From NCBI RefSeq assembly GCF_900143265.1, contig NZ_FRDJ01000001.1, positions 1 to 64,000 on the forward strand: a DNA stretch of 64,000 nucleotides, written 5' to 3'. Origin of the DNA: Fervidobacterium gondwanense DSM 13020. GTDB lineage: Bacteria > Thermotogota > Thermotogae > Thermotogales > Fervidobacteriaceae. Position 1 is the stretch's first letter. Every line of letters begins with the position of its first letter. Below the pieces are notes generated by a model. It worked only from the letters and a program-made list of their open reading frames with translations. It made no database searches and was not told the origin of the DNA. The translations under genes and the position numbers were made by a program. This document shows, piece after piece, positions 889 to 24,291 of this stretch.

Positions 889-2085
889 TTAACGCTCTGC
901 TTTCTTGAAACCAATTAAATCAAGCCCTTTTTGAACATATTTGTTCTTCATGACTATATCCCAAATCATACCGGTTTTGTAGTTCTCAATCATCAAGATC
1001 TCTATTCCCTTATCGATGCCTATATACATCTTAGAAACCCAACTTTTGTCGAGATTGTATGCGTCTTTAAAACCATACTCTCCCCATAGTTCAGGAACGT
1101 TGTCGAAGTAGTATTTGGCCGTGTCTTCAACGATTTCAGGTGTAAATATTATTGAACCGATTGCACCACACGGTGGAACTGTTCCATCCGTTTTGTGCTG
1201 GGTGTTGTTGTTTGCTGATGGTGGTGCACCGAAATCTCCCCTGTAACCTTGCGGTGAATCGCAAGCTGTCAACCCCCACGACTTTTCATGCAAGGTCTTG
1301 TAATGATCGTGCATGTCTTTACAGAATTCCCAGTTGGCGAGCGTTGCCTTCACCGAATTTTCAAACCAATTTACACCATCTTTGTCTGCGATTTCCTTGA
1401 AATCGATCCATGCGTGCGAGAATTGATAAGTGAAGAGAGAGCCAGTGTACGTGTAGATGAGTTCATAATCTTTGTACCTTCCGATTTTTCTTTCGAACGA
1501 ATAGTACACAGATGGGTCGATCGAGTGAGTCGGTGAAGCTACTCCGAGGATATACATAATCAACTGCTCGGCGTATCCATCCCAATTCCCGAAAAATCCC
1601 CTCTCGTAAGTGTAGCCCATATAGTATTGGTTCTTCTTGATGTCAATATACCATGGAAAATCTACACGCGCGTATATATCCTCAAAAGTACTGTAAACAC
1701 TTCCTCCGAAATATTCTCCGACCGTTAAAGCTCCCATCAAAAATAGTGCGGTATCGATGACGGATATTTCGGATTTCCACGCCCTCTTACCATCTTTCAT
1801 GTTTACGAAGTGGATAAAGAAACCATTTTTCTGCTCAACTCTATCTCTAAACGTTTCGAGAGTTTTTAAAGCTCGTTGATAACCATCATTCTTCGAAATC
1901 CAACCACGTTCAACAGCAATTGGTATAGCGCTCAATCCAAATCCAACTGAAGCGATGCTTGATACAGACTTTTCTAAGGTGTTGTCCAGTATGAGCCCGT
2001 AACCTTCATCTGTCTGAGATACTTCATTCCAGAAAAAGTTGAACGATAATCTCTGCTCTAACTCAAGTATTTCGTTTTGTTTCAT
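889..2085 (-). CDS. GH144-type (PF10091 glycoamylase-like) glucanase, cytoplasmic
   Basis: Paralogue of the adjacent secreted enzyme, about 398 residues, with no signal peptide. It carries the PF10091 signatures: SEISVIDTALFLMGAL near residue 120, an aromatic-rich middle (YTGSLFTYQFSHAWIDF), and NNNTQHKTDGTVPPCGAIGSI followed by FTPE near residues 295-315. Characterised members of this fold are GH144 endo-beta-1,2-glucanases and sophorohydrolases; older annotation says glucoamylase. Lacking a signal, it probably trims imported oligosaccharides in the cytoplasm. GGGAGG 11 nt upstream favours ATG at 2085. A TTG at 2112 would overlap the upstream stop by 4 nt and is the alternative. It is the last gene of the operon. 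Substrate is inferred. Confidence 0.75.
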   Translation of the reverse strand: MKQNEILELEQRLSFNFFWNEVSQTDEGYGLILDNTLEKSVSSIASVGFGLSAIPIAVERGWISKNDGYQRALKTLETFRDRVEQKNGFFIHFVNMKDGKRAWKSEISVIDTALFLMGALTVGEYFGGSVYSTFEDIYARVDFPWYIDIKKNQYYMGYTYERGFFGNWDGYAEQLIMYILGVASPTHSIDPSVYYSFERKIGRYKDYELIYTYTGSLFTYQFSHAWIDFKEIADKDGVNWFENSVKATLANWEFCKDMHDHYKTLHEKSWGLTACDSPQGYRGDFGAPPSANNNTQHKTDGTVPPCGAIGSIIFTPEIVEDTAKYYFDNVPELWGEYGFKDAYNLDKSWVSKMYIGIDKGIEILMIENYKTGMIWDIVMKNKYVQKGLDLIGFKKAER

Positions 2086-2108
2086 CGTCGAAATGTCCTC
2101 CCATTCCT

Positions 2109-3383
2109 TCAATTTTTCTTATAAACAAATCCCAAATTTTTCAGACCTTCCTTAACATATTGAATATCCATAAAAACCTTCCAAACAATTTCGTCTTTGT
2201 AATTTGCAATCATTACTAACGTGATCCCTTTATCTATGCCTATGTAATCCGTTGCGTACCAGTTTAAATCCAAGTTGAACGCATCCTTCAGTCCGTATTT
2301 TCCAACGAGATTCGGCAGTTTGTAGTAGTTTTCTACAGCCCAAAGGGTTTCCTTTGGCGTAAAGACGATCGAACCGAGCGCTCCAGCCGGCGCTAACGTT
2401 CCGTCTATCTGGTGCACCGTGTTGTTGTTTCCAGAAGGGGGGGTTCCAAGAAGCCCGTTGTAACCTCTATTTGTATCGCACGCAGTGACGCCCCAACCGA
2501 TTGTAAAGCTTTTGAACTTTTCTGAGTTATCAATACAGTAATTGTAATTTGCAAGGCTTGCTTTGACAGAATTTTCGTACCAATTTACTCCAAGTTTATC
2601 ATACCAGTTCCTGAAGTCTATCCATGCGTGGGAATATTGATATGTGAAAAGTGAACCGAACCAAGAGTGTATGAACTTTTCGCCCTTGTAGCTACCGTAA
2701 TTTCTTTTAAATGAGTAATAAACAGCTGGATCTATTCGGTACTTCTCATTCGGAGTTCCAGCTCCAAGTATGTAGAGCATCAGCTGTTCAGCATAGAAAT
2801 CCCAATGTCCTTCAAAACCTTTTTCCGGATAGTACGCCATGTAGAAATAGTTTTTCACAGGATGAACCATCTTGTTCCAGTTTATGCGTTCATAAAGTTG
2901 TCTTGCCTTATCCCAAACTTGTCCTCCAAAGTATCTTCCCGCTGTGAGCACACCACACATCAGTATCGCGGTATCTATCGTCGATACCTCACTGTTCCAA
3001 GCACGTTTTCCAGTGTTGATGTCTAAGAAGTGATAGAAGAAGCCATTGAAGTGCTCAAGTTTGAGTAGTGTCTCTAAAGTTCCTAAAGCCTTTTTGTATC
3101 CATCTTCCTTCGTTATCCATCCTTCCTCCACGCCGATTACAAGCGCTGTCAATCCAAATCCCGTTGAAGCGATGCTTGCAATCGTTGGGTTACCTGGGTA
3201 CCTATCGCGCACCAAACCGTAACTAGGACTCTTTTCATTCCAGTTCGTTTGCTCAAGGAAGTACATGAACGAGCCTTTGTACTCTTGCAGCAGTACATCA
3301 GGCAGAACATTCCGAGCAAACGTTGATAAGCTCAGAATTACTAAAAAGAAAACAAGAGTGCTTTTAATCTTAGAAGCCGACAT
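2109..3383 (-). CDS. GH144-type (PF10091) glucanase, secreted
   Basis: About 424 residues with an N-terminal signal peptide (basic start, hydrophobic stretch to about residue 23, ending STFA). The body shows PF10091 motifs: SPSYGLVRDRYPGNPTIASIASTGFGL near residue 55-80 (split here across two strands of the fold), WNSEVSTIDTAILMCGVL near 130, and NNNTVHQIDGTLAPAGALGS near 330. GH144 enzymes cut beta-1,2-glucan internally or release sophorose. Export suggests it depolymerises glucan outside the membrane for the ABC importers encoded upstream. GGGTG(AGG) places the start at ATG 3383; the GTG at 3392 lies within the ribosome binding site. It is followed immediately by the cytoplasmic paralogue. 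Confidence 0.78.
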   Translation of the reverse strand: MSASKIKSTLVFFLVILSLSTFARNVLPDVLLQEYKGSFMYFLEQTNWNEKSPSYGLVRDRYPGNPTIASIASTGFGLTALVIGVEEGWITKEDGYKKALGTLETLLKLEHFNGFFYHFLDINTGKRAWNSEVSTIDTAILMCGVLTAGRYFGGQVWDKARQLYERINWNKMVHPVKNYFYMAYYPEKGFEGHWDFYAEQLMLYILGAGTPNEKYRIDPAVYYSFKRNYGSYKGEKFIHSWFGSLFTYQYSHAWIDFRNWYDKLGVNWYENSVKASLANYNYCIDNSEKFKSFTIGWGVTACDTNRGYNGLLGTPPSGNNNTVHQIDGTLAPAGALGSIVFTPKETLWAVENYYKLPNLVGKYGLKDAFNLDLNWYATDYIGIDKGITLVMIANYKDEIVWKVFMDIQYVKEGLKNLGFVYKKN

Positions 3384-3443
3384 TTTCCTCACCCGCTTTC
3401 AATTAGCATCTAACTCTTCTATCTATATCTTACTCACGACATC

Positions 3444-4367
3444 TCACTCACCAGTTATTCCAGTCCTGTCTATACTTTCAACAAACCAGTCTTGAGCGAA
3501 GAAATAAATCAGGAGCAGAGGTACGATGCTCAAGAGCGTGCCCGCCATGACAACTGCCTCATTTATTGTTCTGCCTGTAGCAACGCCGGGCGTTGCTTGA
3601 TATATCCTTCTGAACGTATCTTCGAATCTTTGAAGTTGCAGCGGCAGAGTCGTCCACTTTTCGCCCAAGTACAGCGCCGTAATAACCGTATCGTTCCAGT
3701 ACCACACAAGCGAGAACAAAAACGATATCAGATATGCCGGCACAGCGGAAGGTGCGACGACTTTGTAGAAAACGGTGAAGGTTGATGCACCATCGATTTT
3801 GGCTGCCTCCTCAAGCGATTTTGGGAACATGTTGAAGAATTGGTAGAAAATAAGAATGAATATTGCACTCCTGATTCCTTGCGCAAACGTTGCGGGCAAG
3901 ACCAACGACCATATCGTGCCGAGAAGATTCAAATCCTTAAACATGAGGAACTGAGGAATCATAGTTACTTGTGGCGGTAATATGAAAGTGGCAATAGCTA
4001 TCGCAAGAAGGATATTCTTTCCTGGAAATTTGAATCTCGAGAATCCGTACCCCACTAACGATGCTGAGAACGTTTGGAGTACAGACGGCACTACTGATAC
4101 AATTATCGTTTGAATAAGCACGTTTGCATAGTCTAAAACCTTAGCCGCATCTTTGAAATTGCCTGTGTACAATTTGGTAGGAATCCACTTCACTAAGGGG
4201 TTAACTAAATCTGAAACATCCATAAAACTGTAAGAGAGCATGTATATAACCGGATATACGAAGACGAATCCGATGAGAAGCAACAGAAAATATGTACTCG
4301 CAAGCTGAACTGAATTGACAGCTCTCTTCTTAATCAAGAGCAGTTCGTACTTGTTTGTCTTGCTCAT
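3444..4367 (-). CDS. Sugar ABC transporter permease, MalG type (pair B)
   Basis: 307 residues, six hydrophobic segments, starting with an amphipathic cytoplasmic stretch before TM1 (residues 22-45). The coupling-helix EAA loop reads [26 protein letters not shown] near residue 185 (key residues E, A, G and the P of the VxP turn). It is the inner-membrane half of a CUT1-type carbohydrate importer. It overlaps the upstream permease by 4 nt (ATGA), so the two are translationally coupled and form the heterodimer. It lies after the DUF5696-type gene and before the secreted glucanase. No ATPase gene is nearby, so a shared ATPase is expected. Confidence 0.88.
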   Translation of the reverse strand: MSKTNKYELLLIKKRAVNSVQLASTYFLLLLIGFVFVYPVIYMLSYSFMDVSDLVNPLVKWIPTKLYTGNFKDAAKVLDYANVLIQTIIVSVVPSVLQTFSASLVGYGFSRFKFPGKNILLAIAIATFILPPQVTMIPQFLMFKDLNLLGTIWSLVLPATFAQGIRSAIFILIFYQFFNMFPKSLEEAAKIDGASTFTVFYKVVAPSAVPAYLISFLFSLVWYWNDTVITALYLGEKWTTLPLQLQRFEDTFRRIYQATPGVATGRTINEAVVMAGTLLSIVPLLLIYFFAQDWFVESIDRTGITGE

Positions 4368-5230
4368 GACACCCTAACCCTCTTTCTGTATATAGACGCT
4401 ATCAACACAAAGGCACCGATTACTATCAGAATTGCGATGAAGTAAATCCAAGAAAGTGCTGATGCGTAGCCCAACCCTCTTTCCGGTCTGTACATATCTA
4501 CAAGTATTTTTTGTATTATAGGGCTTGTTGCGAATGTTGATACAGTAACGATAGTGTAGATTATGTTAACGAGCGTAAAAGACGCAAGAACTGGCATAGT
4601 TATTTTCCAGAGCATCTGCCAGCTTGACGCACCGTCGATCTTTGCCGCTTCGTACATGCTCCTGTCTATCTTCTGCAAACCTGCAAGGTAGATGAGAATC
4701 TGTACACCAGAGTACCAGAGTATCATTATAAATCCTGAAATAAACATTCCAACTACCCTTGCAAACGCAGGTGGAAGGCTTGATTGCAGATCCCGTATAA
4801 ACTGGAAATTAGCCAAACCAGAGAACGTCATCGCACCTTTATCCATAAGTTTACTAAAAACAGGACCGCTTGATATTACAACTGGTAGGAAATAAATCGT
4901 TCTGAAAAATCCCCTGCCCTTTATTTTCATGTTCAAAAGCAAAGATGTGACAAGTGCAAAAGATACGATGATCGGCACAAAAACAAACATCTGCATGAAA
5001 TAATCTATAAGAAGCTGTGGATAATTTACGTCCGTCAAAAACGCATCTTTAAAGTTTTTTAATCCGACGAAAAACGTCCTCACACCCTCGGCTGTCACTT
5101 TCACCTCGTTGAGGCTGTAATAGAAAGTTCGTATCAGCGGTATTAAAGTAAAAATCAAGAAACCTACGATCCAAGGCGAAACAAAAATTAATCCCTTTAT
5201 AGCTTCGCGCGTGCTGAGTTTCAATTTCAC
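4364..5230 (-). CDS. Sugar ABC transporter permease, MalF type (pair B)
   Basis: 288 residues. First TM is at about residues 15-35 (FVSPWIVGFLIFTLIPLI) and the EAA loop [21 protein letters not shown] is near residue 190. It starts with GTG at 5230 behind GAGG. It is the MalF-type partner of the permease that overlaps its stop codon. It follows the DUF5696-type gene by 15 bp. The second permease pair in the same operon (9422-11214) suggests either two importers or two substrate chain-length ranges. Confidence 0.87.
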   Translation of the reverse strand: MKLKLSTREAIKGLIFVSPWIVGFLIFTLIPLIRTFYYSLNEVKVTAEGVRTFFVGLKNFKDAFLTDVNYPQLLIDYFMQMFVFVPIIVSFALVTSLLLNMKIKGRGFFRTIYFLPVVISSGPVFSKLMDKGAMTFSGLANFQFIRDLQSSLPPAFARVVGMFISGFIMILWYSGVQILIYLAGLQKIDRSMYEAAKIDGASSWQMLWKITMPVLASFTLVNIIYTIVTVSTFATSPIIQKILVDMYRPERGLGYASALSWIYFIAILIVIGAFVLIASIYRKRVRVS

Positions 5231-5245
5231 AGAACCACCTCTTCC

Positions 5246-7390
5246 TCACTGCTTATTAATTACCGCAAAGGACATAGGTTCTACGGTAATTCCATCTACA
5301 TTTATAACCTTGTCCGTGTAATTGAAGACTACAACAGTTTCATTTTCATAGGTGACCTTATATACGCCTTTCGAAATCTCCTGCCTGTGCCTTGGAACAG
5401 ATAAGAAAAATCCAAGCGCTTTGCTGTACAACTCTCGAGCTTCTTTGATCTTCTCGTACCAGTCAGTAAACTTAGTCGATATTAAATCTCTTGATTGCGT
5501 TTCAACAAGCTTTTCAGAATTCTCCCAAGTCAGGTAGAACGACGGAAGAACGCCGTATTCTATACATTTCAAAAGCTCGTAATTGTAATCTGAGGACAAA
5601 TTAAGCGGTTTTGAAAACACAGGACCGAAATGCCTGAGAATATACGGAACAATCGGAAATTCTTCATCCTCAATTTCGTACATGGAATTGGAAAGGGGAG
5701 CATCGGATATCATACCTGCAACTTTTGTTACATACCAGTTTGTCCCATATACGATAGCCTTTGACATCTTCGAAAAAGCCTCGCTCAATACCTCGAAGAC
5801 ATCTTGCCGGTTATCGGTGTAAGTGGAGTACATAAGCTTACCAAAGGTTCCAATCGCAAAATTGCTTATACCGTACTCTGAAAACTCCGCCAATTCCTCA
5901 TCTAAAATTCTTTTCACTGCGTACGGTGAGATTATGTAAGTATTTTCATACTCCATAAGCTGTTCTAATCTATTCTGTGCTATGTAGTTCTTTCGAACGC
6001 TTTTAGACTCTTTCGAAACACTGATATATTCAACGTAGAAATAATCTTTTGAAAGGTTATTTGCGTTATTCATAACTTTTTTCTCGAACGGAATATGGAT
6101 AGGAGAATTAATCGACAAACCGCCCTTCGAATAACCGCGCAAAACAAAAATGTTTTCTTTCGATATTCTGTTCAACATCTCTTTCATCTTCGTTAAATCT
6201 TCTTCCGTCGTCATTTCGACCAAAGAGTATCCAAAAGTGGATTTTTTAGCCTCAGACATTAGGATGTCGAACTTAAACATTGGTGCTCTTGATTCTACAG
6301 CAGTTTTTTCCTCTACGTACTCTTCAACAAATCGTCTAAGTAAAGAATACTCAAGAGAGTATTCAGACGGCTGACTTATGAAGAAATATCGGACTGAAAA
6401 ACTTGTCGTATTGATTTCCTCTTGAGGTATAGTTATACCTTCCCCAGCTTTGTTGAGCAACTTCTTGTGCATATCTCTCAAGACTATTCGCGGGGATATC
6501 CAGTTAAAAGGTGTAACAATACCTGATCTATACGCATTTATCTCTGCATAAAAGTCGCCTTTTTCGATAACACCCAAAAGCCCTTTCGAATTCTGGCCCT
6601 CGTTGTATATAATCCCATAAATTGGCAGAGCGTAGTTCTCGGGTGATTTTACGTTCTTGAAGTACTTGTAAGGGATAACTTCTTGGAACCCGATATCTTC
6701 ACCATACATCCTCATCTTCAATGGAGCGGTAGCGGTAGTTGTTTTTGAAAGGTCAATCTTTGCCCCGACACCGTCCGCTACTAAGAAACTTCCAGCTACT
6801 GTTCCTTTTGACGCTCCAATGTATGGATATACGTAAATTCCCAAAATCTTGTATTCGCTTTCTTTGATATTATTCACGGAAATCCTTAGAGAATCATCTA
6901 CGAGTTCGTAAATAACATCGAATGAGATCCCGACATTTCCGAATCTTACATGAGCTGTCAGCGATGAATCAGCATAAGAATATTTAGAAACCTCGCCATC
7001 TCTTGTCAAATACGCTCTCCTAACATTTTTAGAAGAGTCGTAAAATTCTACGCTGATACTTGAATTGAAGAACAGATTCCAAGTTTGGTTCAGTTCGCTA
7101 TCTTCATTCGGCATAACGGACTTCCAGATAGCACCATTTCGTTTGTCCTCGACTATGAACGCGAGTGATCTTGGATCGATACCAACACTTAGAATGTTAT
7201 TTTCGAGTTTCAGCAAATAATCCGGAACATGAAATCTGTAAGGTGCCTCCTCAAAGGTCTTTTGAGTGACCTGAGTAACAACCTCTGGTCCACTCTTAAC
7301 CAAGAGTGCTATGAGCACTATTGTTAAGAACACCAAAACGCTTTTAAAGGCAATTCTTCTTATCGCAGAATACTTATCTGACTTTAGCAC
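5246..7390 (-). CDS. DUF5696-type membrane-anchored protein of unknown function
   Basis: 714 residues. A single N-terminal hydrophobic segment (about residues 13-31, after basic residues) anchors or exports it. The rest is a large beta-rich extracellular region with motifs such as NGAIWKSVMPNEDSELNQTW and later a mixed alpha/beta part containing VLRGYSKGGLSINSP. It resembles the DUF5696 proteins found beside sugar ABC permeases and YIP1-type proteins in Firmicutes such as Paenibacillus; this is recognition by memory and no domain search was run. The start is GTG at 7390, overlapping the upstream gene by 17 nt. It may bind or process glucan at the cell surface, but no catalytic residues were recognised. 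Confidence 0.55.
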   Translation of the reverse strand: MLKSDKYSAIRRIAFKSVLVFLTIVLIALLVKSGPEVVTQVTQKTFEEAPYRFHVPDYLLKLENNILSVGIDPRSLAFIVEDKRNGAIWKSVMPNEDSELNQTWNLFFNSSISVEFYDSSKNVRRAYLTRDGEVSKYSYADSSLTAHVRFGNVGISFDVIYELVDDSLRISVNNIKESEYKILGIYVYPYIGASKGTVAGSFLVADGVGAKIDLSKTTTATAPLKMRMYGEDIGFQEVIPYKYFKNVKSPENYALPIYGIIYNEGQNSKGLLGVIEKGDFYAEINAYRSGIVTPFNWISPRIVLRDMHKKLLNKAGEGITIPQEEINTTSFSVRYFFISQPSEYSLEYSLLRRFVEEYVEEKTAVESRAPMFKFDILMSEAKKSTFGYSLVEMTTEEDLTKMKEMLNRISKENIFVLRGYSKGGLSINSPIHIPFEKKVMNNANNLSKDYFYVEYISVSKESKSVRKNYIAQNRLEQLMEYENTYIISPYAVKRILDEELAEFSEYGISNFAIGTFGKLMYSTYTDNRQDVFEVLSEAFSKMSKAIVYGTNWYVTKVAGMISDAPLSNSMYEIEDEEFPIVPYILRHFGPVFSKPLNLSSDYNYELLKCIEYGVLPSFYLTWENSEKLVETQSRDLISTKFTDWYEKIKEARELYSKALGFFLSVPRHRQEISKGVYKVTYENETVVVFNYTDKVINVDGITVEPMSFAVINKQ

Positions 7391-9392: not shown

Positions 9393-9421
9393 ATTCTTGT
9401 CTCCTTCGTGATGGGTGATTA

Positions 9422-10291: not shown

Positions 10292-10326
10292 CTACATCAC
10301 CCCTTGAACAAGAAAAGCGAACCTTG

Positions 10327-11214: not shown

Positions 11215-11227
11215 TCAACCACCTTCT

Positions 11228-14074: not shown

Positions 14075-14130
14075 TTCAGTTCCCTCCTAAAAACTAAAGT
14101 CTGACAAATAGCTGTATGAATCGCCTGAGC

Positions 14131-15435: not shown

Positions 15436-15472
15436 ACAGCTTCCCTCCCTTTCATAAGGTAGTTGAAGGTAA

Positions 15473-17842
15473 TTAACCGAGGATAACCTCAACCGTATGC
15501 TCTCTACCATCTTTAAGTATTGGAACTTTCTCAACTTCTTCTCCGTCTAATAAAAGCTTCTTAACTCCATAACTCACATTATTTGGGTTCTTCACTAAAA
15601 CAGTGTAAAGCGTATTGCCAAAATAGCGCTTGTAAGTGAATCCAGACCAATTCGATGGAATGACGGGATCTATATCGAGATATCCATAGTTTGGCCTTAT
15701 ACCGAGAATCCAGTGAGTAGCTACTCTGTGCAACCACTGTGCAGAGCCTGTGTACCACGTCCAGCCCCCACGACCGTAGTGTGGAGATATCGGTCCGTCG
15801 GAATTGCCACACGTGACGTAGGGTTCTGCCCAGTATTTATCGATGTCCTCACTTCTGTAAGGCGGACATATACCTCTGTACGCTTTGTACATCGCCTCAA
15901 CATCTCTCATCAAAGCAAACGCCCAGACAGCCCATGTTGCAGCGTGAGTATAAACTCCACCGTTTTCTCGCAATCCAGGTGCGTATCTTGTTATGTAACC
16001 TATATCGCTCCTTGGCTTCGTATAAGCTGGATATAGAAGTAGTGCACCGTAATCTTTGAGAAGATATTTCTTCACTGACTCCATAGCACGTATCTTTCTC
16101 TCTTCATCTGTAATATCGCTTATTACCGCCCATGTTTGCGCATTCAGGAAGATGAAACCTTCTTCGTTCTTCTTCGAACCTATCTCCTCCCCGTCGTCTT
16201 TCGTTGCCCTTATGAACCATTCACCATCCCATGCGTATCTATTGACCGATTCCTTTAAAACTTCCAATGTATCTTTGCATTTCGCTGCGAATCTCAAATC
16301 GCCTTTGAGTTCGATCAACGGTATGAATTCTTTAAGCAGCAAGTACATGAAGTGAGCGAGCCAGACACTCTCGCCTTTCCAGTCGGTACCAACGGCGTTC
16401 ATCCCGTCGTTCCAATCGTTCTCTCCTATCAGCGGTAATCCCCTCGGTGAAAATCTTTTGAACGCTTTCTCTATTGCCCTCTTGCAGTGTTCATACAAAG
16501 TACCTTTTCCGCCATCAACGTAAGGTACAACTTCGTCGAGAATAGAATAATCCATCGTTTCCTTTATGTACTCTTGCGTGATGAATGGCAACCACAACAA
16601 GTCGTCCGAACAGTGAGTTCTTGGTCCGCCACCTCTGATAGTGAACCACCAGTGTAGTACATCACCCTCTTGGAATTGGTGCTCGGCATGTAAGAGTATC
16701 TGCTTTTTTGCGAGTTCAGGGTTAAGCGAGAAGAAAATCTGAGAGTCTTGAAGTTGGTCTCTAAAGCCATACCCTGCTGAAACTTGGTAATATCCCGACT
16801 TTGCCCATATTCTCCCAGAAATCGCTTGATACTTCACCCAATAATTCGTCATTATGTTAAGACCCTCGTCCGGTGTCTCGACCAATTCCTTTTCGAGCAA
16901 ATCCAGCCAGAACTTTCTCACATTCTCGAATTCTTCCCTCGCTCTCTCCACATTTGTGTATCTTTTTGACAGTTCTTCAGCATCTTCTTCACCGATCTTA
17001 GCTGCTCCGACTGTGAAGACTATTTCTATTTCTTCCGTTGGTTCAAGCGTAAGTTCTACCTGCAAAGATGCACACGCATCGCCAAATCTATCGCACTTGT
17101 TGTCGAGCTTTTCGATCGTCATTGCAATTGGGAATTTTTCATCTTTGTACATACCAACAAAAGATTCCTTGTCGCACGTGAACGACTTTACAGGGAGGCT
17201 GACGCTGTGGAATGCTACATGGTCCCAATTCGTATTGTTCCATCTGCCCTTTTCATCGGGGAACTGACCCAAATACTTGCGCACGTATATCGTATTACCC
17301 TTGAACTCGGGGACTATAAAGAGCTTGTGAAACTCTCGATGTTCGTCTGGGAAGTTGCCAAGTACCCATTCAAAATAGGATGTAACGTCCAATCTTCGCG
17401 TCTTACTGCTGTCGTTTCTCAATCTTAGATGGATTATTTCAACTGGATCTTTAACGGTCACGAAGACTTTCATCTCTGAATAGATATCTTCTACCTTGTG
17501 TCGATAAACCGTATAGCCGATGCCGTGTGTTACTTCGTAAAGTTGATAATCCGACATGACTGGCTTCCATGCGGCGGACCAGTATTTTCCACTCTCAAGA
17601 TCTCTGATGTAGAAATACTTTCCCCAGTTATCTTTTACGAGATCTTGGTAAAGTCTCGTGATCCTATTCTGACCAGCATTTCCTCTCCAAGAATATCCAC
17701 TCCCCGTGTGCGAAGCTATGATGGAGTAGTCACCGTTACTTATCACATTCACCCAGGGTCGCGGTGTACGCGGGTTGGTTATAACATATTCCTTTCCATC
17801 TTCAGTGAAATACCCGTACTTACTCTCAAATAGCTTTCCCAC
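15473..17842 (-). CDS. GH94 disaccharide/oligosaccharide phosphorylase
   Basis: 789 residues, usual length for GH94. Order: N-terminal beta-sandwich (residues 1-270), helical linker, (alpha/alpha)6 barrel (about 310-720), C-terminal jelly roll. The catalytic-acid region reads LPLIGENDWNDGMNAVG (near 470-484). The acceptor-side motif GYGFRDQLQDSQ is near 357-368 and the phosphate-site region GGWTWYTGSAQW is in the C-terminal part of the barrel. GH94 enzymes split beta-glucosidic bonds with phosphate to give glucose 1-phosphate. The DWNDGMN...GESVWL pattern is closer to the GH94 part of cyclic beta-1,2-glucan synthases than to the DWNDCLN of classical cellobiose phosphorylases. The start is GTG 17842 behind AGGGAG. 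Substrate is inferred: sophoro-oligosaccharides. Confidence 0.85.
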   Translation of the reverse strand: MGKLFESKYGYFTEDGKEYVITNPRTPRPWVNVISNGDYSIIASHTGSGYSWRGNAGQNRITRLYQDLVKDNWGKYFYIRDLESGKYWSAAWKPVMSDYQLYEVTHGIGYTVYRHKVEDIYSEMKVFVTVKDPVEIIHLRLRNDSSKTRRLDVTSYFEWVLGNFPDEHREFHKLFIVPEFKGNTIYVRKYLGQFPDEKGRWNNTNWDHVAFHSVSLPVKSFTCDKESFVGMYKDEKFPIAMTIEKLDNKCDRFGDACASLQVELTLEPTEEIEIVFTVGAAKIGEEDAEELSKRYTNVERAREEFENVRKFWLDLLEKELVETPDEGLNIMTNYWVKYQAISGRIWAKSGYYQVSAGYGFRDQLQDSQIFFSLNPELAKKQILLHAEHQFQEGDVLHWWFTIRGGGPRTHCSDDLLWLPFITQEYIKETMDYSILDEVVPYVDGGKGTLYEHCKRAIEKAFKRFSPRGLPLIGENDWNDGMNAVGTDWKGESVWLAHFMYLLLKEFIPLIELKGDLRFAAKCKDTLEVLKESVNRYAWDGEWFIRATKDDGEEIGSKKNEEGFIFLNAQTWAVISDITDEERKIRAMESVKKYLLKDYGALLLYPAYTKPRSDIGYITRYAPGLRENGGVYTHAATWAVWAFALMRDVEAMYKAYRGICPPYRSEDIDKYWAEPYVTCGNSDGPISPHYGRGGWTWYTGSAQWLHRVATHWILGIRPNYGYLDIDPVIPSNWSGFTYKRYFGNTLYTVLVKNPNNVSYGVKKLLLDGEEVEKVPILKDGREHTVEVILG

Positions 17843-17905
17843 ACCAATCCAGCTCCCTTCGTTATCTTAGTTATTTATTCGCTATCCCCGTCTCAATCTT
17901 CTCTC

Positions 17906-20005
17906 TTAGTCCAAGTCAAGTGATATGATCTCCCCACTTCTTGCCTTTGACCTTACCTTCACATTCTGTCCATTAATCGAAACGATAGCATCTTTGTCAT
18001 ATTCATCGTAGTTATTTACAAATATGAAGCATTTACTGTCGCTCCTTCGAACGTACACATCCACAAAATCTTGACATTCAACCTCGAAGCTTCTTTCTAT
18101 ATTAAGCATTTCACAAACTCTTCTCACGACACCCAACTTGTATTCCCGTTCAAGTTCCAAACCAAATCCCAAGATAACAGCCTTCCCCTTCCCTATTTCT
18201 TTTGCAAATCCACAAACTTTTGAATCTTCATTGTGTGCAAAAGCAGTGTATTCACCTGAGAGTTTATACGTATCTACATGGAACGCGTTGATTTCTATAC
18301 CGAAAGACTGAACCATATTCCATCCAGATTTTGCAATCTCTTCTATTTCAAGCACATCCATAAGCACTCTACATTCATTACCGAATTCATCCTCTACTGG
18401 AATCTCAGGAAAGATTACGAGCCTACCGCCGTGTATTATGTAATCTACGAGAGATTTTTGGATACGCAGTGGCATTCTTTTGTATGAAAATACCCAAAGG
18501 CTTTTAACCGAAGACGGATCTAACACACTTGCTGTATTACTTAAGTTAATCCCACCGAAGTTGTAATTTAACAACTTCAATCCCCTTATAACTCCATCGA
18601 ATATGGACACATCCCTTTTAAATTCCAAATCAGAAATATCGAAGCCGTGTTCTTTAAAATGTTCTGTCGAATAATACTCTGGTATGAATCCAAAATAAGT
18701 ATCAAAAACAGGGTTTGATTTCGCAATATCGGGCTCGAATTGCCGCACCTTAGCAATCAAATTCTTGAGAACAAAATACCCTCTTCTAAGTTCTCCGTTC
18801 AAGGATATAGGTGCTTGCCAATCGTGGTAACTTCCCATCAATGCAGAGCCTTCTGGATTAGTCCCACCAACGAACATGTAGTAATTAACCCCATTCATGC
18901 CGTTACCGATGCACTGCAACGATGTCAGTTCAAGGGTAGATGGCAAGAGCTTAGGCTTGTCCAGCTGAAACCCACTTTGGAACTCCGCTGAGAAAAGAGG
19001 CTGATTCCTATCTTGAACAGCGTACATAATGGCATTCGCTATAGCCAAATCACTGAAATTCTCATGAACTACATTCCCGATATAATAATCTCCTGATAGA
19101 AGGACGTTTTCTGACACGCCACACGAATAGAGCTGTGATACGCCGATTGGATACCTCTTGCCCCTTTTGGCGTACTCTACCATATCGAACCCGTGGATAT
19201 TTACGATAACTGGCAAATCGATTCCGGATTCTTCCAGATACCGCTTAAGCGTTTCGAGGTATTCCTTGTAATACTGCCTGATAAAGACATGATACTCAAT
19301 CATAAGCCTCTGTGAAAAAGCCTTGCCATAAGACCAGTTATCTATCTCATATACACATTCAACTAATCCTTTTTCTTCAAGATAATCACGAAATTTTCGA
19401 ATAGTATTCTCATTGTAATCGCCATGTGTTGTGATCCACTGCAACATCCCGACCTCGTTGTCGACCTGCACTAACCAGACATTATTGAAAGCTCTTATAA
19501 TCTCTGCAACGTTCTTGTACCATCTTTCAACAAATCTCAAGTAATCTGGATGGAGATATGAAAAGACTTTCGTCGGATGCTGTTTACCATCCATAGTTCT
19601 TGCAATAGCCTGCGGGACAGCATTGTAGATCCAAAATGGGAGGCCTTCGTTTTTAAGTTCCGACATTATATATGGTCCTGGCTTGAAGATTAAACCCAAA
19701 TCGTATTTTTCTAACAATCGAAGAAAGCCGATTAAATTCCTTCTTGGATCAGTAACACCTGAAAAATCGAACCTTCTCTCTTCGTATTCATGCCAAAACC
19801 AAGGAACATAAGAACTTACGCTGTCAAATCCTGCGTCCTTTATCTTAATCACTCTATCTTCCCATTCTGATGGATTTACCCTAAAATAGTGGAGTTCAGC
19901 TGAGAAGAATACCCTTTCTTTCCCGTCGAGTACAAACTTTGCACCTTTAACTTCTAATCTTCGAGTTCTAACCTCTCCCAATTTTCTCAATGCTATCCAC
20001 CCCAT
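17906..20005 (-). CDS. GH35-type glycosidase or glucosyltransferase
   Basis: 699 residues. A TIM barrel spans about 20-360. The acid/base Glu is in VQVDNEVGM (E184) and the nucleophile Glu in SAEFQSG (E341), as in GH35. A Rossmann-like domain (VFSYKRMPLRIQKSLVDYIIHGGRLVIFPE) and a small beta domain follow. Most GH35 enzymes are beta-galactosidases, but a GH35 member from an Ignavibacterium gene cluster with GH144 genes transfers beta-1,2-linked glucose, which fits this operon better. No signal peptide, so cytoplasmic. It is the first gene of the operon. The start is uncertain: ATG 20005 has a weak ribosome binding site; TTG 19990 behind GGGGTGG is an alternative. Confidence 0.78.
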   Translation of the reverse strand: MGWIALRKLGEVRTRRLEVKGAKFVLDGKERVFFSAELHYFRVNPSEWEDRVIKIKDAGFDSVSSYVPWFWHEYEERRFDFSGVTDPRRNLIGFLRLLEKYDLGLIFKPGPYIMSELKNEGLPFWIYNAVPQAIARTMDGKQHPTKVFSYLHPDYLRFVERWYKNVAEIIRAFNNVWLVQVDNEVGMLQWITTHGDYNENTIRKFRDYLEEKGLVECVYEIDNWSYGKAFSQRLMIEYHVFIRQYYKEYLETLKRYLEESGIDLPVIVNIHGFDMVEYAKRGKRYPIGVSQLYSCGVSENVLLSGDYYIGNVVHENFSDLAIANAIMYAVQDRNQPLFSAEFQSGFQLDKPKLLPSTLELTSLQCIGNGMNGVNYYMFVGGTNPEGSALMGSYHDWQAPISLNGELRRGYFVLKNLIAKVRQFEPDIAKSNPVFDTYFGFIPEYYSTEHFKEHGFDISDLEFKRDVSIFDGVIRGLKLLNYNFGGINLSNTASVLDPSSVKSLWVFSYKRMPLRIQKSLVDYIIHGGRLVIFPEIPVEDEFGNECRVLMDVLEIEEIAKSGWNMVQSFGIEINAFHVDTYKLSGEYTAFAHNEDSKVCGFAKEIGKGKAVILGFGLELEREYKLGVVRRVCEMLNIERSFEVECQDFVDVYVRRSDSKCFIFVNNYDEYDKDAIVSINGQNVKVRSKARSGEIISLDLD

Positions 20006-20045
20006 AGGCTAACCGCATGTTCAAATTGTTGAATTGAAATATCGA

Positions 20046-20057
20046 TTAAACGTTTCA
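20046..20057. promoter_or_regulatory. LacI-type operator before the 19-kb minus-strand operon
   Basis: The sequence TTAAACGTTTCA has a palindromic AAACGTTT core (20048-20055). It lies about 40 bp upstream of the first gene of the minus operon, downstream of an AT-rich promoter-like stretch (20070-20100). The same core recurs at 21224-21231 before the LacI gene itself, which supports a regulator binding site. Binding is inferred. Confidence 0.65.
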
Positions 20058-20189
20058 CCATATTTCACTAAGATATAATAACACAATCCTTTTTATGAGC
20101 GAAAAGCAAATAGTCACTTCTGGAAAAGAATAAAGACTCGGACACTAATTATTCACCTTTTTTCTATTTTTTGCTACGATTTTCTACAC

Positions 20190-21194
20190 TTATCCTCCTA
20201 TCTTCTTTGTTGAATCTCTTATAACGAGGCTGACATCAAGGACAACGTTCGATATATCAGCTTCCTTATTTTGAATCACACTAAGAAGCATGTGGGCGGC
20301 AAATGATCCAAGCTGGTACATAGGTCTTCTGACTGTTGTTAGCGAAGGGATCACGTAAGATGCGAGCTCTATGTCATCAAATCCTACAATAGACACTTCG
20401 TCTGGTATCTTTAATCCATTCTCTTTAAGTGCTTGCATTGCCCCGATTGCCATCTCATCGTTTGAACAGAAAAACGCAGTTGGTAAGTCCTTTCTTTTCC
20501 TACTTGAAAGGTATTCAAGCATCGCTGAATAGCCAGATTCCTCTGTGAAATCACCCTCAAGCACATCGCTATCTCTTATCTCAAGCTTCAGCTCATTCAT
20601 AGCCCGAACAAATCCTTTATACCTTTCCTTTGCATCCAAAGAATCCTTTGCACCTTTTATAAATCCTATCCTTCTATGTCCGCTTGAATAGAGATACTTC
20701 ACAACCTCGTAAGCACCTTTTTCGTTGTCAACCCTCACACTCTTTACATTCTTTTCTTTAAGTGCCCTATCAAGTGTCACAATGCTGATTTCTTTGGACC
20801 ACTTTACAATGTCCTCGTTCTTCACAGCAGGCGTCATCACCAGCAAACCGCCTACAATACCGGTTCTGAGAAACTTGTCGACATCTTGGCGCCTGTTTTC
20901 CAAAGTACAGTAAATCAAGAGGTTGTATCCAAACGAATGGAGCACGTCCTGTATGCCACGGACAAGTGCATCGTAAAAAGGACCCTTTATCTCATGAACG
21001 ACAAGTGCAACCAAATCATACTGCTGTTTTTTGAGATGCTTTGCAAATTTGTTCGGTACATAATTCAGTTCTTCAATTGCTCTTAGAACCTTCTGCCGAG
21101 TCTCTTCACTTATTTTTCCCGTGTTGTTCAACACGTACGAGACTGTTGAAATCGAAACCCCCGCTCGTTTTGCCACGTCTTTTATGGTTGCCAT
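20190..21194 (-). CDS. LacI-family transcriptional regulator
   Basis: 334 residues. The N-terminal helix-turn-helix reads ATIKDVAKRAGVSISTVSYVLN (split here by one turn), with the hinge helix NYVPNKFAKHLKKQ at about 45-60. A periplasmic-binding-like effector domain follows (GIVGGLLVMTPAV, SSGHRRIGFIKG, CSNDEMAIGAMQALKENGLKIPDEVSIVGFDD). It lies between the minus operon and the divergent GH35 gene and is flanked by three matching palindromes. It is therefore very likely the local, self-repressing regulator, with a sugar or glucan breakdown product as inducer. ATG 21194 follows GGGGAGG. Confidence 0.92.
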   Translation of the reverse strand: MATIKDVAKRAGVSISTVSYVLNNTGKISEETRQKVLRAIEELNYVPNKFAKHLKKQQYDLVALVVHEIKGPFYDALVRGIQDVLHSFGYNLLIYCTLENRRQDVDKFLRTGIVGGLLVMTPAVKNEDIVKWSKEISIVTLDRALKEKNVKSVRVDNEKGAYEVVKYLYSSGHRRIGFIKGAKDSLDAKERYKGFVRAMNELKLEIRDSDVLEGDFTEESGYSAMLEYLSSRKRKDLPTAFFCSNDEMAIGAMQALKENGLKIPDEVSIVGFDDIELASYVIPSLTTVRRPMYQLGSFAAHMLLSVIQNKEADISNVVLDVSLVIRDSTKKIGG

Positions 21195-21220
21195 ACCTAA
21201 TCCTCCCCACTGTTTTTTTC

Positions 21221-21319: not shown

Positions 21320-21370
21320 TGGTAAAATATATTACGAGCGGACTTAAGGAACTTCATTGAAATGTTTCAA
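21320..21370 (+). promoter_or_regulatory. Promoter and operator of the divergent GH35 unit
   Basis: An extended -10 (TGG TAAAAT, 21320-21328) has no good -35. About 30 bp downstream lies a perfect 6+2+6 palindrome, TTGAAATGTTTCAA (21357-21370), related to the two AAACGTTT sites of the same regulator region. A weaker TTGAA/TTCAA pair is at 21254-21268. The leader to the gene start is about 75 nt. Confidence 0.55.
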
Positions 21371-21445
21371 CAAACAATGTTCGAGGTTAAAACCAAATGC
21401 GAAGTTTATTAGAAATCATTAGAAAATTGGAAAAGAGGTGTGGAG

Positions 21446-23563
21446 ATGATTAATAGGCAACAGAGGATATTGGGTGAGGAACTTATCGTATCGGCGGAGA
21501 TTCATTACTTCCGCTTAGCACAAGAAGAGTGGGAAAAGAGGATAGAGCTTGCAAAAGACGCAGGTTGCAACACAATTGCATCTTACATTCCTTGGCTTGT
21601 TCACGAACAAAAGAGAGGTTCGTTCGACTTTTCTGGAAATTACGATGTAGCTAAATTCATAGACCTCGTGGCAAATTACGGCATGTATTTCATAGCGAGG
21701 CCAGGACCTTTCGTAATGGCGGAATTGAAAAACGAAGGTATACCGTACTGGATATACGAAGAGAAGCCTCACTTAATACCAGTTAGCTGGAATTCAAAGA
21801 AGGTTGAAAGTGCGATTCTTGTCTACAATCATCCCGACTTCATCTCTGAAGTTGAGAGATGGTACGCCGAGTTGTCAAAAATCATCAAGCCAAGATTGAT
21901 ACAAAATTGCGGCAATATAATAGCGATTCAGCTTGACAACGAGATAGGAATGTTGCACTGGGTGAACAACTCACCTGACCTTTCGGACTTCACGCTCGAT
22001 AGGTTCATAGATTGGCTCACAGAAAAGTACCACGACAAGCTTAGATACGGTTTTGAACTTGAAAAGGATGATCACGTCTATTCTTTACTTAGGAGTCCTT
22101 CTCAAGAATATTCGGAAAAGTTCGTTGAAGATTATTCGATTTTCATTAGGCAGGAATATGCAATTTACGTGGAGAAACTGAAGAGCATCTTCGAAAATCT
22201 TGGAATCGATACTAACTTCATCGTAAACATTCATGGAACATCGGGTGGTCGTGGTCATACTTTTCCTATCGGCATATCACAACTAAAAGAAACATTCCCA
22301 CTGTCTAATGTTTTTCCATCGACCGACATTTATCTTGGCGAGTACTCTCTACACAACTTCCACGACTTGTGGAACATAAACGAGATGATGAATGCTACCT
22401 CAGATAAGGTATACGGGAGTATGGAGTTTGAATGCGGCAGCGGTGACTACGGCGACAACTTCGGTCAGAGGATTGACCCGAATTCTACAATACAAAAGGC
22501 AGCTTTGTGCTATATTCAAGGTAACAGATTTCTGAATTATTACCTTTTCAGTGGAGGAACGAACTGGAAACTTGACACAGAACCTTTCGATGGAAATGGT
22601 AGGATAGCGTTCACAGGAGAATTGCATGGCTTTGCCGCTCCTGTATCTCCAGATGGCACACCAGACTATCCATACGAATACATCAAATTAGCAAACGAAC
22701 CTTTGAAAAACATTGAGAAGCAGACAGCCGGCAATTTTAAATTGGTATACGATGACATTTACGTGGCATACTTGGACGAATATTACAGAACTGAGTACAC
22801 GTTCCATAACAAAAAAAGACCGAACATAGAAATCAGAAGAGGTTACAACTTCTGGGACAGTTTCCTAAAATCTTTGTTGATTATGGGTTATAGGTACAGA
22901 TTCATCGACTTAGAGAAAAAAGAACCCATAGGCGATGCACTCTTAATCATCCCTGCAGCAAGATACATGTCTTTTTCAATTCAAAAAAAGATTGTTGACT
23001 TTGTGAATAAAGGCGGCAAAGTACTCCTTTATGGTGATCTCCCGCTGTATTCTTCAGACGGTTCACCTTGCACATATTTGATCAACAATCTTGAAATATC
23101 TCCCGGCGAAGAATATAATGCTTCTCACAAGTTCTTCCTGTCGGTATATTCTCCTAAGGGGATTTTTAAAGAATTCAGAACATATTGGGCTAGAGAATTG
23201 AAATTTGAACCTACCGATAATGAAACTGAGAAACTTGCATGTATTTCACAGATTGAAAAGCCATGCGCAGTGAGAAAGGGAAACATAACAGTAATATCGA
23301 CCGAATTCAATGGAAATTTGAAATTCTTCGAGTATATCTTACACAGTCTCGGATTTTATAGTAAAATAAAGCTAACAGGCACTCGAAAAGATGTTATAGG
23401 GACATTCCCGTTCTTGTTGGAGAATGAAAATAATAAGTTTTTAGTAGTCCTCAACAATGACAATTACGAGAAGAATGTTGAGATTTTGTTCGAAGGTAAA
23501 AATATAGGAAATTACAGAATCAAGCCAAAGGAAATCGTTTTTCGAGAGATCGCATTGAGGTGA
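21446..23563 (+). CDS. GH35-type glycosidase or glucosyltransferase, second copy
   Basis: About 705 residues, a distant paralogue of the GH35-type gene at 17906. The barrel starts with AEIHYFRLAQEEWEKRI. Acid/base Glu is E166 in IQLDNEIGM and nucleophile Glu is E327 in SMEFECGSG. A Rossmann-like domain (LLIIPAARYMSFSIQKKIVDFVNKGGKVLLYGDLP, split by a turn) and a C-terminal beta domain follow. There is no signal peptide. AGAGGTG 5 nt before ATG 21446 fixes the start; GTG 21440 overlaps it. The differences around the nucleophile (FECGSG versus FQSG) suggest different substrates or linkages. Cotranscribed with the alpha/beta hydrolase that follows. Beta-galactosidase activity is possible but not favoured by context. 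Confidence 0.76.
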   Translation: MINRQQRILGEELIVSAEIHYFRLAQEEWEKRIELAKDAGCNTIASYIPWLVHEQKRGSFDFSGNYDVAKFIDLVANYGMYFIARPGPFVMAELKNEGIPYWIYEEKPHLIPVSWNSKKVESAILVYNHPDFISEVERWYAELSKIIKPRLIQNCGNIIAIQLDNEIGMLHWVNNSPDLSDFTLDRFIDWLTEKYHDKLRYGFELEKDDHVYSLLRSPSQEYSEKFVEDYSIFIRQEYAIYVEKLKSIFENLGIDTNFIVNIHGTSGGRGHTFPIGISQLKETFPLSNVFPSTDIYLGEYSLHNFHDLWNINEMMNATSDKVYGSMEFECGSGDYGDNFGQRIDPNSTIQKAALCYIQGNRFLNYYLFSGGTNWKLDTEPFDGNGRIAFTGELHGFAAPVSPDGTPDYPYEYIKLANEPLKNIEKQTAGNFKLVYDDIYVAYLDEYYRTEYTFHNKKRPNIEIRRGYNFWDSFLKSLLIMGYRYRFIDLEKKEPIGDALLIIPAARYMSFSIQKKIVDFVNKGGKVLLYGDLPLYSSDGSPCTYLINNLEISPGEEYNASHKFFLSVYSPKGIFKEFRTYWARELKFEPTDNETEKLACISQIEKPCAVRKGNITVISTEFNGNLKFFEYILHSLGFYSKIKLTGTRKDVIGTFPFLLENENNKFLVVLNNDNYEKNVEILFEGKNIGNYRIKPKEIVFREIALR

Positions 23564-23568
23564 AGAGG

Positions 23569-24291
23569 ATGAACAAATACGGTTCTTTAATAAGTTGGTT
23601 GATTTTACTTCTTTCAATTCCATTGTTTGTGTTCATAACATGGGCTTACAGTCCTATGAAGGCACTACCAGAAGTCAGCGAGTATTTAAAATCATCAAAT
23701 ATGGTTGATGTCTTGGTCGATAAACATATTTACTTTATCCCTAAGACCGATGCACCTGAGGTAGGGGTTATAATCTATCCTGGTGGGCATGTTGAAAATA
23801 GAGCTTACACGCCAATCGGGTACAGATTAGCTGAGAAAGGTATAATTGCAGTTGTACTCGAAGCTCCGATGAACTTCGCCATATTTGACACAGAGGCCGC
23901 ATCTGATGTGATAATGAAATTCCCTGATATAAAATGGTACGTGGCAGGGCATTCCTTAGGTGGCGTTGCTGCATCAGAATTTGTGTACAAGTACAAAGAT
24001 GATGTTGCTGGGCTGATACTGATGGCATCCTATCCAGCGAAAGACGTTTCGAAACTGGACTTGAAAGTATTATCGATATACGCGTCAGAGGACGGACTTG
24101 CTACACCACAGAAAATAAAGGAAAAAAAGCCATTGCATCCAAGCATTACGAAGTATGTACTGATTGACGGTGGAAACCATTCTCAGTTTGGATATTACGG
24201 CTTCCAAAAAGGAGATAAACAAGCTAAAATAACAAAAGAAGAACAGATGAGCATTATTGTAAAGTCAATAATTGACTTTATAAAAGAATAA
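23569..24291 (+). CDS. Membrane-anchored alpha/beta hydrolase
   Basis: About 240 residues. A hydrophobic segment at 9-27 acts as signal anchor. The hydrolase triad is visible: nucleophile S129 in GHSLGG, acid D175 in ASEDGLA, base H204 in GGNHSQFG. The oxyanion-side motif YPGGHVENRAY is near residue 70. It resembles alpha/beta hydrolase family 5 (dienelactone-hydrolase-like). AGGTGA 5 nt before ATG 23569 fixes the start, only 5 bp after the GH35 stop, so it is in the same operon. It may remove acyl substituents from the imported glycan, but this is inference. No terminator was recognised after it. Confidence 0.8.
   Translation: MNKYGSLISWLILLLSIPLFVFITWAYSPMKALPEVSEYLKSSNMVDVLVDKHIYFIPKTDAPEVGVIIYPGGHVENRAYTPIGYRLAEKGIIAVVLEAPMNFAIFDTEAASDVIMKFPDIKWYVAGHSLGGVAASEFVYKYKDDVAGLILMASYPAKDVSKLDLKVLSIYASEDGLATPQKIKEKKPLHPSITKYVLIDGGNHSQFGYYGFQKGDKQAKITKEEQMSIIVKSIIDFIKE

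What the first reader, a model, noticed from the sequence alone, without database searches (positions are those of the whole stretch)
889..24291. Candidate beta-1,2-glucan uptake and phosphorolysis locus with a 19-kb, eleven-gene operon
Seen: eleven minus-strand genes with gaps of at most 63 bp, plus LacI and a divergent pair. Contents are two PF10091/GH144-type glucanases (one secreted, one not), GH94 with an NdvB-like DWNDGMN motif, two GH35-type enzymes, two binding proteins and two permease pairs. Known: GH144 enzymes cut beta-1,2-glucan, and a GH35 from an Ignavibacterium GH144 cluster transfers beta-1,2-linked glucose. Inference: extracellular depolymerisation, import of sophoro-oligosaccharides, then intracellular trimming and phosphorolysis. 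I know of no characterised Thermotogota system of this kind.
Basis: partly seen in the sequence, partly recalled or inferred. Interest (0 to 1): 0.82.

Follow-up and report, generated by a model that had tools for sequence, protein, structure and literature searches.

The report
Thermotogota beta-1,2-glucan locus with double importer
This DNA encodes the enzymes a heat-loving bacterium would need to eat beta-1,2-glucan, joined to an undescribed eight-gene uptake module of fixed gene order that related bacteria reuse for other beta-glucan linkages.

Summary
The minus-strand operon (889-20005) has twelve genes, not eleven, plus lacI and a divergent GH35/hydrolase pair. Both PF10091 proteins match solved GH144 enzymes over full length and keep the diagnostic residues; one is secreted, one cytosolic. 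[quoted passage not shown] GH35a's nearest solved relative is the Ignavibacterium beta-1,2-glucosyltransferase. A 14-bp LacI-type operator occurs exactly twice in the 2.15-Mb genome, on both sides of lacI. A beta-1,2-glucan catabolic locus is therefore well supported, but as a relative of the known Ignavibacterium cluster.

The transport genes, with two unmentioned genes (DUF5696; NHL/Yip1 membrane protein), form one cassette whose seven core genes keep the same order in 27 loci, including Paenibacillus and Butyrivibrio. In Thermotogota it comes with GH144/GH94/GH35, with GH16/GH3/(often) a GH149/161-like phosphorylase, or with GH30/GH3, and the cassette tree follows these enzyme sets. DUF5696 looks GH129/GH101-like. 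I found no paper on it in the library searched. Substrates, complex formation and the roles of DUF5696 and Yip1 remain inferred.

The parts
889..2112 (-). GH144c: cytosolic GH144 endo-beta-1,2-glucanase homologue (no signal peptide; true start probably the ATG at codon 10)
   Evidence: PF10091 262 bits; 8xul XcSGL 215 bits; E182, D120, F227, Y290 match CpSGL E211, E142, F268, Y330
2109..3392 (-). GH144s: secreted GH144 endo-beta-1,2-glucanase homologue
   Evidence: PF10091 208 bits; 8xul 210 bits; hydrophobic N-terminus conserved in orthologues, same four residues kept
3444..4367 (-). permG1: ABC permease of the second pair, EAA motif EAAKIDGAS
   Evidence: PF00528 59 bits; motif and class identities
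4364..5230 (-). permF1: ABC permease of the second pair, EAA motif EAAKIDGAS
   Evidence: PF00528 36 bits
5246..7390 (-). DUF5696 protein: N-terminal TM helix, then a GH129/GH101-like extracytoplasmic body; probably non-catalytic
   Evidence: PF18952 341 bits; profile vs PDB 8rzg/5opq E 2e-4; Foldseek 5opq E 4e-11 from a low-confidence model; acidic-residue conservation
7374..9392 (-). NHL-repeat (beta-propeller) extracytoplasmic part fused to a Yip1-like membrane domain
   Evidence: NHL 47 bits, Yip1 E 1e-4; Bacillota orthologues hit Yip1 at 38-50 bits, and in Butyrivibrio the two parts are separate genes
9422..10291 (-). permG2: ABC permease of the core pair
   Evidence: PF00528 52 bits; mean 61-64% identical to the other linkage classes in Thermotogota
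10327..11214 (-). permF2: ABC permease of the core pair; cassette hallmark
   Evidence: 29 phylum places at 62% identity or more, next best 37%; 57% to Paenibacillus
11228..14047 (-). Large SBP: beta-sandwich/CBM35-like N-terminal half plus C-terminal SBP domain (about 516-939); real start probably ATT near 14071
   Evidence: PF01547 73 bits at 533-817; hit to 5x7g at 249-343 and weak Lin1841 (5ysb) hit
14131..15534 (-). Second solute-binding protein (real start ATG near 15435)
   Evidence: PF01547 81 bits; nearest solved 22hh, 256 bits, ligand not visible here
15473..17842 (-). [quoted passage not shown]
   Evidence: 29 vs 4 diagnostic positions with CGS vs cellobiose-phosphorylase type; tree
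17906..20005 (-). GH35a: IaSGT-like beta-1,2-glucosyltransferase or glucosidase, cytosolic
   Evidence: 7vkx IaSGT 324 bits over 24-669; E102, E176, E343 equivalents kept, R349 position is Q
20045..20058 (+). LacI-type operator ATTAAACGTTTCAC upstream of the operon
   Evidence: only two copies in the 2.15-Mb genome; related TGAAACGTTTCA or AGAAACGTTTCA sites near lacI in orthologous loci
20190..21194 (-). LacI-family regulator
   Evidence: PF00356 and PF13377
21221..21234 (+). Second copy of the operator, in the lacI/GH35b divergent promoter region
21440..23563 (+). GH35b: second, more distant IaSGT-like GH35, cytosolic
   Evidence: 7vkx 143 bits over 15-679; catalytic Glu equivalents kept, R349 position is D
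23560..24291 (+). Membrane-anchored alpha/beta hydrolase, role unknown (possibly de-esterification)
   Evidence: PF12695 182 bits; 4-bp overlap with GH35b
840..862 (-). GCCCCC...GGGGGC inverted repeat just after the last gene, followed on the minus strand by a T-rich tract: probable terminator
   Evidence: read from the sequence printed; the scanner allows only short loops and does not list it

Best explanation
A LacI-controlled beta-1,2-glucan utilisation island. Proposed steps: GH144s is secreted and cuts beta-1,2-glucan; an eight-gene cassette (SBP, large CBM-bearing SBP, permF2/G2, NHL/Yip1, DUF5696, permF1/G1) captures the products and imports them with an ATPase encoded elsewhere; in the cytosol GH144c shortens long (or opens cyclic) chains, GH94 phosphorolyses them to glucose 1-phosphate down to sophorose, and GH35a/b (in some relatives also a GH3) deal with sophorose. 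The cassette is one conserved functional unit whose sequence class follows the linkage of the glucan. Shown here: family identities, active-site residues, secreted/cytosolic pairing, operator sites, conserved gene order, class/enzyme co-segregation. Inferred: substrates, direction of flux, assembly of the cassette proteins into one complex, and a non-enzymatic glycan-handling role for DUF5696.
For: GH144 identity and residues. GH94 with the CGS group, 29 vs 4 diagnostic positions, clade 100/100. GH35a closest to IaSGT. The GH94 search gives one GH94 in this genome and the PF10091 search two proteins, all in this locus, so no cyclic-glucan synthase was found: catabolic rather than biosynthetic. 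Operator twice in the genome, both here, with similar sites in orthologous loci. Nine intact syntenic loci across three family groups of the phylum. The seven-gene order is intact in 27 loci in two phyla. All 28 permF2 orthologues examined sit with DUF5696; next homologue only 37% identical. The cassette tree splits by enzyme set. All four permeases carry EAA-type ATPase-contact motifs. UgpC/MsmK-like ATPase elsewhere in the genome, 54% to the one beside the Paenibacillus cassette. The Ignavibacterium cluster has the same enzyme set (PMC8861115).
Against: No enzyme of this clade is known to me to be characterised. GH35 acceptor-site Arg349 is replaced. The large SBP's best solved relative, sophoro-oligosaccharide-binding Lin1841, scores only 50 bits against 45 for the next; the ligand of 22hh is unknown to me. 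Tree support for the beta-1,2 cassette clade is 92 SH-aLRT, under the method's 95 star, from a quick run. Bacillota cassettes lie beside a GH43 or no glycosidase, so the cassette is not restricted to beta-glucans. The DUF5696 and large-SBP models are low confidence (pLDDT 43 and 46).
Confidence: 0.75

Rival explanations
1. The transport genes are two independent CUT1 importers (large SBP with permF2/G2, and SBP with permF1/G1) for different oligosaccharide lengths, co-transcribed for convenience; DUF5696 and NHL/Yip1 are accessory or sensory proteins of one of them.
For: Each pair could have its own binding protein and both carry EAA-type motifs; the pairs evolve at different rates (permF2/G2 61-64% to the beta-1,3 class, permF1/G1 42-44%); in Bacillota other SBPs lie after permG1.
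Against: The order is fixed in 27 loci, DUF5696 and NHL/Yip1 always stand between the two pairs, and no cassette-type permF2 was found outside a cassette in 103 genomes (28 of 29 places examined).
Confidence: 0.4
2. The locus serves another beta-glucan (beta-1,4 or beta-1,3), with GH94 a cellobiose phosphorylase and GH35 enzymes beta-galactosidases or exo-glucosaminidases.
For: Pfam labels are generic; NCBIfam exo-beta-D-glucosaminidase is the top GH35 model (220 bits).
Against: That model's cut-off is 1500 bits; GH94 is on the CGS side, away from Thermotoga cellobiose-phosphorylase-type sequences; the GH144 enzymes described act on beta-1,2-glucan (PMC12102758, PMC11842490); beta-1,3 and beta-1,6-type cassettes exist separately, the former in the same genome, with GH16 or GH30.
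Confidence: 0.07
3. The enzymes remodel a self-made or cyclic beta-1,2-glucan (osmoregulated glucan turnover) rather than scavenging an external one.
For: A cytosolic GH144 next to a phosphorolytic GH94 resembles the CGS module set (PMC10901819).
Against: No CGS-type protein found: PF10091 finds only these two proteins and GH94 only this one in the genome; dedicated importer and secreted GH144s; LacI control.
Confidence: 0.08

Closest known systems
Ignavibacterium album IALB_1177-1187 beta-1,2-glucan cluster (IaSGT cluster; PMC8861115)
   Same: Two GH144, CGS-type GH94, GH35 IaSGT, a sophoro-oligosaccharide-binding-protein homologue
   Different: As described it relies on a TonB-dependent transporter plus ABC importer; the passages read do not mention a double permease set, DUF5696 or NHL/Yip1, and its GH144 enzymes are placed outside the cytoplasm
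Listeria innocua lin1839-1841 (SOGP, GH3 beta-glucosidase, SO-binding protein; PMC12369401 and PMC8861115)
   Same: Import of sophoro-oligosaccharides, phosphorolysis, ATPase encoded elsewhere
   Different: Different GH94 branch (LpSOGP 5h3z scores only 30 bits); single importer; no endo-glucanase in the described cluster
GH161 beta-1,3-glucan phosphorylase clusters (PMC6484121)
   Same: Endo-glucanase plus importer without ATPase gene plus cytosolic phosphorylase plus GH3; like the beta-1,3-type cassettes seen here
   Different: Different linkage; neither DUF5696 nor the double permease arrangement came up in the passages I read
GH129 (ZgGH129, 5opq/8rzk) and GH101
   Same: Weak co-linear profile similarity and best Foldseek match of DUF5696
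   Different: 12% identity; no strictly conserved Asp/Glu pair in the barrel across DUF5696 proteins examined; N-terminal membrane anchor

Membership tests
GH144 (endo-beta-1,2-glucanase, clan GH-S) | Full-length similarity to characterised GH144 enzymes | tested here: met
   XcSGL 8xul 215 and 210 bits, CpSGL 5gzh 159 and 136 bits
GH144 (endo-beta-1,2-glucanase, clan GH-S) | Clan residues E (acid), F, Y and an acidic general-base candidate | tested here: met
   All four positions kept in both window proteins and, where covered, in all 29 homologues aligned (residue roles from PMC12102758)
GH144 (endo-beta-1,2-glucanase, clan GH-S) | Hydrolysis specific to beta-1,2-glucan | not testable with these tools
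   needs enzyme assay; dbCAN/CAZy not available
GH94, CGS-type 1,2-beta-oligoglucan phosphorylase | GH94 catalytic domain with the DWND catalytic Asp motif | tested here: met
   PF17167 409 bits; DWNDGMN
GH94, CGS-type 1,2-beta-oligoglucan phosphorylase | Groups with CGS domains rather than cellobiose phosphorylases | tested here: met
   29 vs 4 diagnostic positions; 100/100 split. Only three broad groups, unrooted; the cellobiose-phosphorylase label rests on the Thermotoga-type clade, not on assays
GH35 beta-1,2-glucosyltransferase (IaSGT) | Catalytic Glu176/Glu343 and Glu102 | tested here: met
   kept in GH35a and GH35b
GH35 beta-1,2-glucosyltransferase (IaSGT) | Subsite +1 Arg349 | tested here: not met
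   Q in GH35a, D in GH35b; PMC8861115 says it varies among homologues, so membership in GH35 stands but identical acceptor use is not claimed
CUT1 carbohydrate ABC importer | Two permeases with EAA-type motif, SBP, shared MsmK/UgpC-type ATPase | tested here: met
   four permeases with the motif, two SBPs, ATPase at G000:C7:86442-87533
GH129/GH101-like glycosidase (DUF5696) | Fold and co-linear profile similarity | tested here: inconclusive
   E 2e-4 profile match; Foldseek E 4e-11 but pLDDT 43 and TM 0.24
GH129/GH101-like glycosidase (DUF5696) | Strictly conserved catalytic Asp/Glu pair in the barrel | tested here: inconclusive
   one position always acidic but mixed D/E (380), E574 not universal; residues of ZgGH129 could not be mapped exactly

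The most novel reading that the evidence does not exclude
The eight-gene cassette is a single double-barrelled ABC importer for long or cyclic glucans: four permeases, two binding proteins, an NHL/Yip1 membrane scaffold and DUF5696 as a catalytically dead GH129-like glycan-holding subunit, swapped as a whole to change linkage specificity. In the beta-1,2 class it takes in chains or rings too large for phosphorolysis alone, which the cytosolic endo-acting GH144c opens. Only the beta-1,2 class keeps a cytosolic endo-enzyme; the GH16 and GH30 enzymes of the other classes are nearly all predicted secreted.
Probability: 0.25. Interest if true: 0.83.

Novelty: new variant of a known kind. Interest (0 to 1): 0.64.

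Why it matters
It gives three families (DUF5696, the NHL/Yip1 protein, the CBM-bearing large SBP) a shared and testable role in glycan import, and shows an importer layout that stays fixed across two phyla while its sequence class follows the linkage of the glucan. It also adds a thermophilic beta-1,2-glucan pathway with probably thermostable GH144, GH94 and GH35 candidates, and a clear question: why import needs two permease pairs and a cytosolic endo-glucanase.

Tried and rejected
The genome-contig scan with the broad DUF5696 alignment could not run and the narrower one found four Thermotogota loci only. A viral-contig scan found nothing. Weak DUF5696 hits in many Thermotogota genomes (E 1e-4 to 1e-9): the two opened (L028, L029) read by eye as alpha-amylase-type enzymes and were set aside. 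Cellobiose phosphorylase identity for GH94 was tested and rejected. Rfam search of the window gave nothing. Paper searches for DUF5696 and for Yip1/NHL with ABC transporters found no description of the cassette.
Full report
Observation. Genes overlap or lie within tens of bases of each other. A GC-rich inverted repeat with a T-rich tail follows the last gene at 840-862 (sequence; not listed by the scanner).

Enzymes. Both PF10091 proteins are GH144-like over full length; the nearest solved relative of both is XcSGL (8xul), then other GH144 structures. XcSGL is classed as GH144 in PMC12102758, which defines the clan by a Glu, a Phe and a Tyr and proposes an acidic general base. All four positions are kept in both window proteins and, where the sequence covers them, in all homologues aligned. 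In each of nine relatives that carry the pair complete, and in the window, one copy has a strongly hydrophobic N-terminus and the other does not; a divergent further locus (G071) has one secreted and one apparently cytosolic GH144 in the same cluster. [quoted passage not shown] Against three CGS-type domains and nine Thermotoga cellobiose-phosphorylase-type proteins, the locus GH94s share 29 diagnostic positions with CGS and 4 with the latter, and the tree separates them at 100/100 (three broad groups, unrooted). GH35a is nearest to IaSGT, a beta-1,2-glucosyltransferase (324 bits); GH35b is a more distant relative (143 bits). The catalytic Glu residues are kept, the acceptor-site Arg349 is not.

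Regulation. ATTAAACGTTTCAC occurs exactly twice in the 2.15-Mb genome, in the two intergenic regions beside lacI (20045, 21221), with no reversed-pattern control match. Related TGAAACGTTTCA or AGAAACGTTTCA sites lie near lacI in most orthologous loci examined (L133-L138), not in the beta-1,3-type loci tested. This ties operon, regulator and GH35b into one predicted regulon.

The cassette. Comparison with 103 Thermotogota genomes showed that the permeases, the large SBP and the two genes absent from the finding (DUF5696 and NHL/Yip1) form a block of fixed order: large SBP, permF2, permG2, NHL/Yip1, DUF5696, permF1, permG1, usually preceded in Thermotogota by a second SBP. I count 27 loci with the seven genes in that order: nine with GH144 and GH94 (GH35 in most), thirteen with GH16 and/or GH3 and often a GH149/161-like phosphorylase, two with GH30/GH3, one without visible enzymes, and two in Bacillota, Paenibacillus cellulosilyticus and Butyrivibrio fibrisolvens. 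In G067 a mobile HNH/RRXRR gene is inserted between DUF5696 and permF1; in Butyrivibrio the NHL and Yip1 parts are separate genes. permF2 is a sharp marker: 29 places at 62-100% identity, then a drop to 37%; 28 of the 29 were examined and all lie in cassettes. One cassette copy in G069 is truncated (L078).

Linkage classes. The concatenated tree of six cassette proteins puts the GH144-linked cassettes on one side (SH-aLRT 92), the GH30-linked ones together with L142 (100) and the GH16/GH3-linked ones together with L085, whose contig ends (100). Several genomes, including the window's, carry both a beta-1,2-type and a beta-1,3-type cassette, so the split is by substrate class rather than by species. 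Between the beta-1,2 and beta-1,3 classes the permF2/G2 pair stays 61-64% identical while the SBP falls to about 26% and DUF5696 to about 23%, as expected if permF2/G2 are a common core and SBP and DUF5696 meet the glycan. That last reading is inference.

DUF5696 and NHL/Yip1. A profile of 16 DUF5696 proteins finds only GH129-type entries in the PDB set (8rzg/8rzk, 5opq; E 2e-4, three co-linear stretches). Foldseek of a low-confidence model also ranks ZgGH129 first, with GH38 and GH101 enzymes following. Only D206, D232 and an acidic D/E at 380 are always acidic; the mixture at 380 and the loss of E574 in some members suggest that it is not a working glycosidase, but I could not map the ZgGH129 catalytic residues exactly. 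A membrane-anchored, GH-derived glycan-handling subunit is the most economical guess. NHL/Yip1 has an extracytoplasmic propeller and a membrane domain.

Energy and completeness. The locus encodes no ATPase. A UgpC/MsmK-type ATPase 54% identical to the one beside the Paenibacillus cassette lies at G000:C7:86442-87533; ATPases encoded elsewhere are also described for the Listeria beta-1,2-glucan importer and GH161 clusters (PMC6484121). The genome shows no cyclic-glucan synthase: GH94 occurs once and PF10091 twice, all here. Some relatives add a GH3 to the beta-1,2 island (G067 inside the operon, G023/G025 beside lacI), consistent with sophorose as an end product.

Cytosolic endo-enzyme. Only the beta-1,2 islands keep a cytosolic endo-glucanase; GH16 and GH30 in the other classes nearly all have hydrophobic N-termini (L075's GH16 start is unclear, and one GH30 is cut by the locus end). 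Since the GH94 phosphorylase works from chain ends, a cytosolic GH144 suggests that large or cyclic beta-1,2-glucans enter the cell. This is a hypothesis.

Known versus new. The enzyme set matches the Ignavibacterium album cluster (PMC8861115), so the beta-1,2-glucan pathway is a new member of a known kind. The fixed double-permease cassette with DUF5696 and NHL/Yip1, and its co-segregation with linkage, I did not find described: no paper in the library mentions DUF5696, and Yip1/NHL/ABC searches gave nothing relevant. The library is partial, so absence there is not proof of novelty.

Noticed in passing
G000:C2:1-19999 (L075): A second cassette in the same genome, with GH3, a GH149/161-like phosphorylase, GH16 and lacI: probably the beta-1,3-glucan version.
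   Followed up: partly
G000:C23:1-7556 (L077) and G000:C19:10000-21646 (L076): Probably two halves of a third cassette (GH16/GH3 type), broken at contig ends inside DUF5696.
   Followed up: partly
L067:10770-12140 (G067): An RRXRR/HNH mobile gene inserted between DUF5696 and permF1 of an otherwise intact beta-1,2 cassette.
   Followed up: no
L074 (G068), L071 (G069), L134 (G070): Decay of the island within the same genus: G068 keeps only a GH144 fragment next to GH35b/hydrolase/PhoU, G069 keeps a GH144 pair with one copy truncated, G070 has a truncated GH35b.
   Followed up: partly
L129, L130, L132 (G037, G021, G089): A second type of Thermotogota GH144 locus: a large GH144 protein (with CBM9 in the related copy L047) next to GH94 and lacI, with an ordinary importer and no cassette.
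   Followed up: partly
window 24361-26381: PhoU-like and PiT phosphate transporter genes directly after the GH35b/hydrolase pair; the PhoU-like gene is also there in G067, G068 and G070 but not in G074. A link to phosphorolysis is unproven.
   Followed up: no
window 14047-14077: The large SBP has no canonical start giving a full signal peptide; an ATT codon at 14071 behind AGGAGG is the likely start.
   Followed up: partly
window 14131-15534: Nearest solved relative is PDB 22hh (five entries of one sequence), whose ligand could not be read here and would test the substrate directly.
   Followed up: no
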